Origin: an uncultured Lachnospiraceae bacterium
Lineage (GTDB): Bacteria; Bacillota; Clostridia; Lachnospirales; Lachnospiraceae
Assembly (NCBI GenBank): GCA_951800145.1
Contig: CATOJE010000003.1
Location: 1-64,000 of the forward strand
Direction: 5' to 3'
Length of the DNA stretch: 64,000 nt
Shown here one piece after another: positions 7,515 through 10,953 of the stretch. The notes under the pieces were generated by a model. That model saw only the letters and a program-made list of their open reading frames with translations. It was not told where the DNA came from and searched no databases. The position numbers and the translations under genes are program-made. The first letter of the stretch is position 1. The number at the start of each line of letters is the position of its first letter.

Positions 7515-7773
7515 CCTTGTCCTTGTCCTTTACGATAACCGTTCTGTTTTGCGTAATTTTCAAGGATTCGCTTCTTGGCACACTGCTTGCAAAATAGCGC
7601 CCCCTGCATTTCCCGTTCCGCTCCATCTATCTGTGTTAAAATTGAATTTTTATGACCTTAGCAAGATTATTGATGTGTTCGCAAAAATTTTCTCGCTTTT
7701 CTCATCTGGTTGTGCTATACTGTACTTCGGTTAGTTTGGCTTGTGGTTTCGCAGCCGGAGAGGAGCAAATGCA

Positions 7774-8016
7774 ATGGCAGTATCTTACAAAAAACTATTC
7801 AAAATCCTTATCGACAGAGATATGAAAAAGAAAGATTTCCGAGAGTATGTTGGCATCAGCTATTCGACCTTGAGCAAACTGGAAAAGGGTGAGAACACAA
7901 ATGTGGATGTGCTGGAGCGGATATGCCTGAAAATGGATTGCCGCATAGAGGACATCATGGAGATATTGCCAGACCAGAGGCAGGATCCACAAAGACAAGA
8001 GCAAAGCGAAAATTGA
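7774..8016 (+). CDS. XRE family HTH regulator
   Basis: MAVSYKKLFKILIDRDMKKKDFREYVGISYSTLSKLEKGENTNVDVLERICLKMDC.. Confidence 0.9.
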   Translation: MAVSYKKLFKILIDRDMKKKDFREYVGISYSTLSKLEKGENTNVDVLERICLKMDCRIEDIMEILPDQRQDPQRQEQSEN

Positions 8017-8030
8017 AAGGAGGCACGCCT

Positions 8031-8513
8031 ATGGAGAGAAAAGAGTACAGTGCCGGAGCGGTCAAGGTGTGTTTTTGGTTCAGTGAGTTCCGCAAGATCG
8101 TGACGCTCTTGAATGAAGGTAACAGCATGGAAGATATAAAAAGCCTGAACCAGCGAGAAAACATTTTCTCGGCTCCCACTCCTCTCCGTGCCAATCAGAT
8201 ATTCAGCTCGGTGTCTGCCCGTGTGAGCAGTTTGGACAGCAGCTTCTATCCGTTGTTCCTTGAGAGTGACCTTGCAACGCAGAAACTCTTTACACTTGTT
8301 AGTGCAATGGCATATGACACGCTGCTTTTCGATTTTGTCTACGAGGTTATCCGAGAGAAAATGATTCTCGGCACAAATGAGCTGCCTGACAGCGATGTGC
8401 GTATTTTTTTTAAGAACAAGCAGATTCAGAATGAAAAGGTGGCCGGATGGACAGACGCAACTCTGAACCGGCTCGGTCGATGCTACCGCACAATGCTGTA
8501 TGAGCGAGGCTAA
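8031..8513 (+). pseudogene. brxA: BrxA (DUF1819) of a BREX locus, 3'-truncated
   Basis: MERKEYSAGAVKVCFWFSEFRKIVTLLNEG..NRLGRCYRTMLYERG* resembles BrxA but stops early and runs into pglX 3' sequence. Confidence 0.75.
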
Positions 8514-9061
8514 AAAAAGTCTACAGCCCGGACACGCTGGAGCAGAACCTGGAATTCATCGCCAAGGCCCTGGGCGGCAGAGGCAATACCAGCCGGGAGA
8601 TCATCCGCAATTATTTCCTGAAGGACTTCTTCGCCGACCACTGCAAAATCTACCAGAAGCGCCCCATCTACTGGCTGTTCGACAGCGGCAAGCAGAACGG
8701 CTTCAAGGCGCTGATCTATCTCCACCGCTACACGCCGGACACCATCGGCAACATGCGGATTGACTATCTCCACAAGATGCAGCGGGTCTATGAGAGCGAA
8801 ATCGAGCGGATGCAGGATATGATCAACCACAGCAAGAACCCCCGCGAGGTGGCCGTCTCCGCCAAGCGTAAGGAGAAGCTGCAAAAGCAGCTCAAGGAGT
8901 GCCGGGAGTATGACGAGAAAATCAGCCACCTGGCCCTCAGCCGGATCGAGTTGGACTTGGATGACGGCGTGAAAGTCAACTACCGCAAGGTGCAGACCGG
9001 CAGAGACGGCAAGCTCTATGAGGTGCTGGCGGACAGCAAGAATATTATGGGGAAGAAGTAG
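8513..9061 (+). pseudogene. pglX: C-terminal remnant of BREX adenine-specific methyltransferase PglX
   Basis: Open frame without start: KKVYSPDTLEQNLEFIAKALGGRGNTSREIIRNYFLKDFFADHCKIYQKRPIYWLFDSGKQNGFKALIYLHRYTPDTIGNMRIDYLHKMQRVYESEIERM.. Confidence 0.8.
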
Positions 9062-9087
9062 GTAGAGTTAAATTGAGGAGACGTGCT

Positions 9088-10698
9088 ATGTCATATATAG
9101 ATAATGTCCAAGAACTTCTGGAAGCAAAAGAAGGCGAGAATGTACAATTCAAGGAAGCTAAAAATCGTTTTAGCTTTGAAGTAGCGGCAAAATGTTGTTG
9201 TGCCCTGGCGAACGATGGCGGTGGTAAGCTGGTATTTGGCATCACAGACAAAAGGCCTCGCAAGGTAGTAGGAAGCTCGGCTTTTGACCAGCCAGAGCGT
9301 ACACGCATGGGCTTTATTGAGAAGCTGAAAATCAATATTGATTTCCAGCTGTTCAGCTATGACGGGAAACGAGTTCTGGTTTTCGATGTGAAGAGTCGTC
9401 CAATAGGATTGCCTGTCCAATGTGATGGTGTGGCGTGGATCTATGAAGGTGACACATTAAAACCTATGCCGGAAGATACGCGCCGCAGGATTTATGAAGA
9501 GACCGGCGGCGATTTCTCCGAGACGATCTGCGCCGGAGCGGCGGTTGATGACCTGGACGAAACCGCTATTGAAAACTTCCGTACCAAGTGGATCGAAAAG
9601 AGTGGCAAAAAACAGCTTGCCACTCTTTCAAAAGAACAGCTTCTCCATGATTGCGGCGCGGTCACGGATGACGGCGTGACATACGCAGCCTTAATTCTGT
9701 TTGGAAAGAACGCGGCAATCATTAAGTATTTGCCGCAGGCTGAAATCATTTTTGAATACCGCTCTTCCGAAGCATCAGGCCCTGCTAATCAGAGAGAAGA
9801 GTTTAAGGTCGGTTTCTTCGCGTGTTATGACCGCGTTTGGGAGCTTGTCAATCTGCGGAACGACAAGCAGCATTATCAGGAAGGTTTTTTCGTATTTGAC
9901 ATTGCTACATTCAATGAACGTGTTGTCCGAGAAGCGATCCTGAATGCGGTAAGCCATAGAAACTACCAGTTTGGCGGCAGCATATTTGTCCGTCAGTTCC
10001 GGGACCGGCTGGTTGTGGAAAGCCCCGGTGGACTGCCGTTTGGTATCACACTTGACAATATACTGGATCGCCAGCTTCCGCGCAATCGACGTATCGCGGA
10101 AATCCTTTCCCTGTGCGGCATGGTGGAACGCTCTGGACAGGGTATGAACCTGATGTTTGAATTAAGTGTGCAGGAGGCAAAACCGCTCCCCGACTTCACA
10201 GGAACGGATGATTTTTTCGTTATCGTCACTCTGAATGGTTTGATTATTGATAAAGCCATGCTTTCGGTTATCAATCGGATCGGTGAAGCCACTATGGAAT
10301 CTATGTCCACCGATGATTTTCTGGTTATTGATATGCTGTATCACGAGCGACCGCTCACTGAAAAAACGCAGTCTCGGTTGAATCGGCTGATAGAGATGGG
10401 TATTGTTGAGCATATCGGGCGAAAGAAGTATGTTCTCGCGAGAAGTCTCTATGCGGCAACGGGAAAAAGTGGTGTGCATACAAGGCATGTTGGTTTGGAT
10501 CGGAACACTAACAAGGAGCTACTGCTAAAACATATCCGCCAGAACAATGAAGTTGGTACTCCATTCAAAGAATTGCAGCAAGTTTTACCGGGGCTTGATC
10601 GCAACCAAATCCGGGTTTTAATGAGGGAATTACGTAAAAGTGGAAAGGTTTTCTGCGAAGGAACAACGAGTGCCGCAAGGTGGTACACTAACGAATGA
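9088..10698 (+). CDS. AlbA_2/Schlafen-type ATP-binding protein (divergent AAA-4 / RecG-like C-terminal ATPase)
   Basis: NVQFKEAKNRFSFEVAAKCCCALANDGGGKLVFGITD; REAILNAVSHRNYQFGGSIFVRQFRDRLVVESPGGLPFG; SD gagg before ATG 9088. Confidence 0.85.
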   Translation: MSYIDNVQELLEAKEGENVQFKEAKNRFSFEVAAKCCCALANDGGGKLVFGITDKRPRKVVGSSAFDQPERTRMGFIEKLKINIDFQLFSYDGKRVLVFDVKSRPIGLPVQCDGVAWIYEGDTLKPMPEDTRRRIYEETGGDFSETICAGAAVDDLDETAIENFRTKWIEKSGKKQLATLSKEQLLHDCGAVTDDGVTYAALILFGKNAAIIKYLPQAEIIFEYRSSEASGPANQREEFKVGFFACYDRVWELVNLRNDKQHYQEGFFVFDIATFNERVVREAILNAVSHRNYQFGGSIFVRQFRDRLVVESPGGLPFGITLDNILDRQLPRNRRIAEILSLCGMVERSGQGMNLMFELSVQEAKPLPDFTGTDDFFVIVTLNGLIIDKAMLSVINRIGEATMESMSTDDFLVIDMLYHERPLTEKTQSRLNRLIEMGIVEHIGRKKYVLARSLYAATGKSGVHTRHVGLDRNTNKELLLKHIRQNNEVGTPFKELQQVLPGLDRNQIRVLMRELRKSGKVFCEGTTSAARWYTNE

Positions 10699-10725
10699 TT
10701 CAAATAGCTAAGGCATTTTGGAACC

Positions 10726-10769
10726 AACTTGGGATTAACTTGGGACTAACTTGGAACTAACTTGCGACT
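10726..10769. repeat. 11-bp tandem repeat, 4 copies
   Basis: aacttgggatt aacttgggact aacttggaact aacttgcgact. Confidence 0.9.
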
Positions 10770-10953
10770 TGATTGCAATCTCAATCAGAGAGTGAATGTG
10801 CTTTTGAAAACCTCCAGCCTGTTTGACCCGTTCCCATCAGAGATGGGGACGGACACGGCGTTCCTTGACAGGATGCACTGCTATATCCCAGGCTGGGAGA
10901 TTCCCAGGTTCCGCCCAGAGCATTTTACAAAGCGGCCCGCCCCATATGTGTGA
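10762..10953 (+). pseudogene. brxL: Internal fragment of BREX Lon-like protease BrxL
   Basis: NLNQRVNVLLKTSSLFDPFPSEMGTDTAFLDRMHCYIPGWEIPRFRPEHFT resembles the conserved BrxL segment NQSVxxLxKTSHLFxPFPxxMxDxAFxDRxHxYIPGWEIPKxRPExFT. Confidence 0.75.

What the first reader, a model, noticed from the sequence alone, without database searches (positions are those of the whole stretch)
7774..10953. Collapsed BREX phage-defence locus with colinear remnants at both ends
Seen in sequence: an XRE regulator, a BrxA/DUF1819 ORF ending prematurely, an open frame matching only the C-terminus of PglX, an intact AlbA_2 ATPase, then a 63-aa piece carrying the BrxL segment KTSSLFDPFPSEM..DRMHCYIPGWEIPRFRPEHFT. 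Established knowledge: BREX operons run brxA-brxB-brxC-pglX-(accessory)-pglZ-brxL. The remnants keep that order, while brxB, brxC, most of pglX, pglZ and most of brxL are absent. Inference: sequential internal deletions left a defence-island scar in which only the regulator and the ATPase look functional.
Basis: partly seen in the sequence, partly recalled or inferred. Interest (0 to 1): 0.75.

Follow-up and report, generated by a model that had tools for sequence, protein, structure and literature searches.

The report
Collapsed BREX phage-defence operon scar
A once ~15-kb bacterial anti-phage operon (type 1 BREX) has been cut down by at least three deletions to about 3 kb of leftovers, in which only its small regulator and an accessory Schlafen-type gene still look usable; this is a clear but ordinary case of a defence system decaying, and similar scars occur in other gut bacteria.

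Summary
In detail: profile searches identify XRE (7774-8016), truncated BrxA (8031-8513), the last ~181 codons of PglX (8516-9061), an intact AlbA_2/GHKL-ATPase gene (9088-10698) and an internal ~51-codon BrxL piece (10777-10929), in canonical BREX order. The reading as a decayed type 1 BREX operon is also supported. Full-length relatives with the same order are common in the family (PglX piece 83% identical to intact 1205-1237-aa frames). The pieces carry no decay mutations, so the collapse is recent. The same genome has a second BREX (full-length, without brxL) on another contig. Three other collapsed BREX loci (G008, L071, G385) have different junctions: a recurrent fate, not a conserved mini-system. 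The surviving gene is better called a Schlafen-family accessory effector; homologues occur in BREX, type I RM and solitary contexts, often followed by 11-bp repeats. Verdict: real, well explained, modest interest.

The parts
7774..8016 (+). XRE/HTH_26 regulator of the former BREX operon, intact (80 aa)
   Evidence: PF13443 4.2e-16; homologues directly upstream of brxA in BREX loci C6, L050, L051, L076, L107, L109; 92.5% identical in the G008 scar, dN/dS 0.026
8031..8513 (+). brxA, truncated after codon 160; stop lies at the junction
   Evidence: PF08849 1.2e-49, 1-157/184; intact brxA frames of about 200 codons in relatives
8505..8516 (+). Deletion junction 1 (brxA / pglX); about 7.4 kb missing by comparison with G082
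   Evidence: alignments to brxA and pglX donors
8516..9061 (+). pglX 3' end (last ~181 codons), no start codon of its own before 8753, out of frame with brxA
   Evidence: NF033452 4.6e-70, 1048-1209/1210; 83% identical to full-length PglX of G082 and G178
9088..10698 (+). Intact Schlafen-AlbA_2 / HATPase_c_4 gene (536 aa), accessory gene of the former BREX operon
   Evidence: PF04326, PF13749; 82-91% identical homologues inside intact BREX loci; Foldseek to 3lmm and SLFN11/13/5; dN/dS 0.03-0.05
10718..10769 (+). Array of 4.7 direct repeats of 11 bp (TTGGGACTAAC) just after the Schlafen gene
   Evidence: TRF score 69; same kind of array after 15 of 31 homologues
10770..10780 (+). Deletion junction 2 (Schlafen tail / brxL); pglZ and the first ~351 codons of brxL missing, about 3.7 kb
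   Evidence: donor alignments and L057/L076 spacing
10777..10929 (+). Internal fragment of brxL (BrxL residues 352-402 of 710)
   Evidence: PF13337 3.8e-15, TIGR02653 1e-19; 84% identical to intact BrxL of G009
10920..10931 (+). Deletion junction 3 (brxL / C_GCAxxG_C_C gene), shared ACAAA
10923..11018 (+). 3' end of a C_GCAxxG_C_C (putative redox protein) gene, 5' part deleted
   Evidence: homologous genes in L006, L008, L010, L017; PF09719 3e-12 for the L008 gene

Best explanation
The locus is the scar of a type 1 BREX operon of the kind XRE-brxA-brxB-brxC-pglX-(Schlafen)-pglZ-brxL. At least three recent deletions, probably by illegitimate recombination at very short matches, removed at least 12 kb: brxA 3' end to pglX 3' end, the region from the Schlafen gene's tail to the middle of brxL, and brxL middle to the 3' end of a neighbouring C_GCAxxG_C_C gene. 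BREX modification and restriction cannot work from what is left. The old promoter would now drive a short transcript XRE - truncated brxA - pglX scrap - Schlafen gene, so the locus probably survives as a regulator plus one accessory effector gene. Shown: the pieces, their order, the junctions, the intact relatives. Inferred: the recombination mechanism, the order of events, transcription, and activity of the Schlafen protein.
For: Family hits for every piece. Intact relatives with the same order: L101, L102, L103, L105, L107, L057, L066, L076, L050, L075. PglX piece 83% identical to intact PglX frames of 1205 and 1237 codons in G082/G178. DNA alignment to L103 (G082) puts 8531 opposite 9261 and the brxA end opposite about 1818, i.e. 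about 7.4 kb missing. L057 and L076 put about 3.7 kb between the Schlafen tail and the brxL piece. Junctions lie at short imperfect matches. Three further scars with other junctions: G008 (14 codons of brxA joined out of frame to the last 54 codons of pglX, then an AlbA_2 gene and a cut pglZ), L071 (pglX internal deletion, Schlafen gene 99% identical), G385, a one-contig genome (transposase/pglX 3' end, Fic gene, pglZ with internal deletion). The pieces have no stops or frameshifts and pglX and XRE show dN/dS 0.03-0.08 against relatives, so the loss is recent.
Against: No copy of exactly these junctions was found in another assembly, and no intact allele at this site: flanking genes are not syntenic in the 10 other species of the genus. 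The genome is a 148-contig assembly, 86% complete, so an assembly error is not formally excluded, though three clean junctions at non-repeats make it unlikely.
Confidence: 0.93

Rival explanations
1. The fragments form a conserved mini-system: truncated BrxA, the PglX DNA-recognition end and the Schlafen protein act together as a compact defence unit.
For: brxA and pglX pieces have open frames, and the pglX piece low dN/dS; pglX 3' ends next to intact-looking accessory genes recur in four scars.
Against: The four scars keep different lengths of pglX 3' end (181, 54, 37, 64 codons) and different accessory genes; the pglX piece is out of frame with brxA and has no start in its first ~79 codons; G008 keeps only 14 codons of brxA; the brxL piece lacks both ends.
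Confidence: 0.03
2. Accessory survivor (an addition to the best explanation rather than an alternative to it): the BREX core is dead, but the Schlafen-AlbA_2 gene under the old XRE promoter is kept by selection as an independent abortive-infection gene.
For: Intact 536-aa frame with a GAGG motif before its ATG; window against L071, both in collapsed loci, 38 synonymous to 7 non-synonymous changes over 536 codons; homologues 69-76% identical live outside BREX, in a type I RM locus (L056) or alone (L058, L059, L060, L065); Schlafen genes are listed as BREX backup effectors (PMC12839542).
Against: The collapse may be too recent for decay to show; no expression data; the position matching the second catalytic glutamate of SLFN13 is Gln in this subfamily.
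Confidence: 0.5
3. Assembly artefact: reads of an intact operon were wrongly joined.
For: Draft genome, 86% complete, 148 contigs, with a second BREX on contig C6.
Against: The pieces are not from the C6 system (PglX 56% aa; BrxL absent from C6); the joins are not at long repeats; similar scars exist in other genomes, one of them a one-contig assembly.
Confidence: 0.03

Closest known systems
Type 1 BREX operon (brxA-brxB-brxC-pglX-pglZ-brxL) with an accessory Schlafen/AlbA_2 gene, e.g. L076, L057, L102
   Same: Same order, same regulator type where it is visible, pieces 63-91% identical to their closest intact relatives
   Different: brxB, brxC, pglZ gone; brxA, pglX, brxL are fragments; fused to a non-BREX gene at the right end
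Schlafen-family RNase fused to a minimal histidine kinase-like ATPase and wHTH, described as a BREX/BR backup effector (PMC12839542)
   Same: AlbA_2 + HATPase_c_4, inside or beside BREX
   Different: Here the BREX core is lost; the second catalytic acidic position is Gln in this subfamily
StySA, a BREX system crippled by mutation in Salmonella lab strains (PMC9009780)
   Same: A BREX locus that lost function
   Different: There by altered alleles (brxC, pglZ) in an otherwise present operon, here by multi-kilobase deletions

Membership tests
Type 1 BREX system (functional) | Six core genes brxA, brxB, brxC, pglX, pglZ, brxL | tested here: not met
   only fragments of brxA, pglX and brxL; no brxB, brxC or pglZ in the region
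Type 1 BREX, degraded remnant | Homology of each piece to BREX core families | tested here: met
Type 1 BREX, degraded remnant | Pieces colinear with the intact operon | tested here: met
   compare L101-L103, L057, L076
Type 1 BREX, degraded remnant | Pieces cannot encode the full proteins | tested here: met
   profile ends and frames
Type 1 BREX, degraded remnant | Intact allele at the same site in a sister strain | tested here: inconclusive
   no held genome has this site; only 11 species of the genus held
Schlafen-AlbA_2 / GHKL ATPase / wHTH accessory effector | AlbA_2 domain followed by HATPase_c_4 | tested here: met
   structural match to 3lmm and Schlafen N-domains
Schlafen-AlbA_2 / GHKL ATPase / wHTH accessory effector | C-terminal winged helix | tested here: inconclusive
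   no curated Pfam winged-helix hit in this protein; the model has helix-helix-helix-strand-strand at residues 472-534, as a winged helix would
Schlafen RNase | Three acidic residues of the SLFN13-type active site | tested here: inconclusive
   E15 and D54 present, Q20 at the second site, Glu in the more distant homologues L066, L072, L074, L077; residue correspondence inferred from the EFK motif and own knowledge of SLFN13

The most novel reading that the evidence does not exclude
Accessory effectors outlive BREX: in this family of gut bacteria BREX cores are repeatedly deleted while the effector gene between pglX and pglZ (Schlafen or Fic) is kept, leaving regulator-effector mini-operons; the Schlafen gene with its 11-bp repeat array would be a portable cassette with its own DNA site.
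Probability: 0.2. Interest if true: 0.55.

Novelty: new member of a known kind. Interest (0 to 1): 0.33.

Why it matters
It shows by clean junctions how a large multi-gene defence operon disappears: by several big recent deletions, not slow mutation, in a genome that keeps a second BREX. With three other independent scars it makes testable whether accessory effector genes are selectively retained when the core is lost. Annotation pipelines that call BREX from one gene would be misled by such loci.

Tried and rejected
Conserved mini-system: rejected because scars differ in what they keep and the pglX piece lacks a start. Empty-site comparison in the genus: close matches in the sister species cover glgX but not the neighbours seen here, so the original insertion site could not be shown. 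Phage or plasmid origin: the Schlafen gene has no close plasmid relative (below 60%). The two close 'phage' records are unannotated faecal contigs, and the one inspected (MT835838) carries pglX and pglZ, so it is BREX DNA. Viral-contig scan for the Schlafen gene: nothing confirmed. The literature search for BREX with AlbA returned unrelated papers. AlphaFold model of the Schlafen protein has good domains but uncertain domain packing (pLDDT 77, pTM 0.48). Using the 99% Schlafen homologue L071 as an intact sister copy: rejected, it is itself a collapsed locus at a different site.

Full report
Observation. The ORF table and sequence place an 80-aa XRE protein at 7774-8016, a 160-aa frame at 8031-8513, an open frame without start at 8516-9061, a 536-aa gene at 9088-10698 and a 63-aa ORF at 10762-10953. 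Profile searches identify them as XRE/HTH_26, BrxA cut at position 157 of 184, PglX positions 1048-1209 of 1210, SLFN_AlbA_2 plus HATPase_c_4, and BrxL. Chance is excluded by E-values from about 1e-11 to 1e-74. The BrxL piece is internal: residues 352-402 of a 710-aa BrxL.

The junctions. brxA homology ends and pglX homology begins around 8505-8516, in different frames; the brxA stop lies at the join, and the pglX frame has a stop just upstream and no start before 8753. Compared with the intact locus of G082 (L103) about 7.4 kb is missing there. The second junction joins the tail of the Schlafen gene to brxL at about 10775; in L057 and L076 the same two points are about 3.7 kb apart, with pglZ between. 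All joins are at short, partly imperfect matches, as expected for illegitimate recombination (inference).

Intact relatives. A genome-collection scan with the Schlafen protein gave 37 loci. In L057, L066 and L076 it lies between pglX and pglZ of a BREX operon, in L051 and L080 right after brxC, and in L050, L053 and L075 between the two halves of a split pglX. Searches with the truncated BrxA and with the PglX piece found full operons in many genera of the family: BrxA up to 69%, PglX 83% identical to frames of 1205 and 1237 codons; L101, L102, L103, L105 and L107 show the order brxA-B-C-pglX-(accessory)-pglZ-brxL.

Second BREX in the same genome. Contig C6 carries XRE, brxA, brxB, brxC, pglX, an AlbA_2 gene and pglZ, all full-length, without brxL; the only brxL match in the genome is the scar fragment. 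brxL is missing from about a quarter of type 1 systems (PMC12839542), so this may still work. Its PglX is only 56% identical to the scar piece, so the scar is not a copy of it.

Other scars. G008, same genus: XRE 92.5% identical, 14 codons of brxA joined out of frame to the last 54 codons of pglX, then an AlbA_2 gene and a pglZ cut after about 294 codons. L071: Schlafen gene 99% identical at protein level, preceded by a pglX piece with a different internal deletion and by what reads like a transposase remnant (the latter by eye only). G385, a one-contig genome: a transposase start joined to the last 64 codons of pglX, a Fic gene, and a pglZ with an internal deletion, while a full BREX lies elsewhere in that genome. 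The four scars share no deletion junction. They are independent losses, which speaks against a conserved mini-system and makes an assembly error unlikely.

Timing and function. The pieces carry no stops or frameshifts. Pairwise dN/dS is 0.07 for the pglX piece against G008, 0.08 against L075, 0.03 for XRE, and 0.05 for the Schlafen gene against L071; some of these pairs are near saturation at synonymous sites, so the values are rough. This fits recent deletions; it does not prove selection after the collapse. The Schlafen protein model matches 3lmm over its length and the N-terminal domains of SLFN11, SLFN13 and SLFN5. Schlafen proteins fused to a minimal histidine kinase and wHTH are described as backup effectors of BREX and related systems in over a thousand taxa (PMC12839542). 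In this subfamily the residue that would match the second catalytic glutamate is Gln, so RNase activity needs testing.

Conclusion. The locus is a recently collapsed type 1 BREX operon. The most likely residual function is an XRE-controlled Schlafen gene (about even odds that selection keeps it). As a class it is known: defence loci decay. The possibly new elements are the recurrence with intact-looking accessory genes and the repeat array behind this Schlafen subfamily. The sample of scars is small (four) and two of them were found by queries that favour the Schlafen gene, so the retention pattern is a hypothesis only.

Noticed in passing
window 10718-10769; also L054, L056, L057, L060, L061, L066, L067, L069, L075, L076, L083, L071, L050, L110: Directly after the stop codon of this Schlafen-AlbA_2 subfamily there is an array of 11-bp direct repeats (consensus ACTTGCGACTA); two or more copies exactly 11 bp apart follow 15 of 31 homologues, in BREX and non-BREX contexts (background 0.0-0.2 hits per 250 bp), but not the AlbA_2 genes of other subfamilies checked. 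Possibly a binding site for its own C-terminal domain.
   Followed up: partly
L050, L053, L075, L110: BREX loci with pglX split into a ~860-aa part and a ~300-330-aa C-terminal part, each its own frame, with cargo genes (RES-like, TIR, FRG, AAA, Schlafen) inserted between them.
   Followed up: partly
G000 contig C6 about 61.7-74.5 kb (L013, L014): A second BREX operon in the same genome, with full-length brxA, brxB, brxC, pglX, pglZ and its own AlbA_2 gene, but no intact brxL anywhere in the genome.
   Followed up: partly
window 7582-7653 and G008:C19:86930-87002 (L047): A 73-bp non-coding stretch left of the regulator is 95% identical to a place in G008 unrelated to its BREX scar, although glgX of the two species is only 79% identical; perhaps the end of a mobile element or former island border.
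   Followed up: no
window 10779 and L071 2544: The window and the independent scar L071 diverge from each other just after the 11-bp array, where intact homologues also diverge, as if the array's edge were prone to recombination or a cassette border.
   Followed up: no
L141 7245-8285: Collapsed BREX in a one-contig genome (G385) keeps an intact Fic/DOC gene between pglX and pglZ remnants, next to a ResIII helicase gene.
   Followed up: partly
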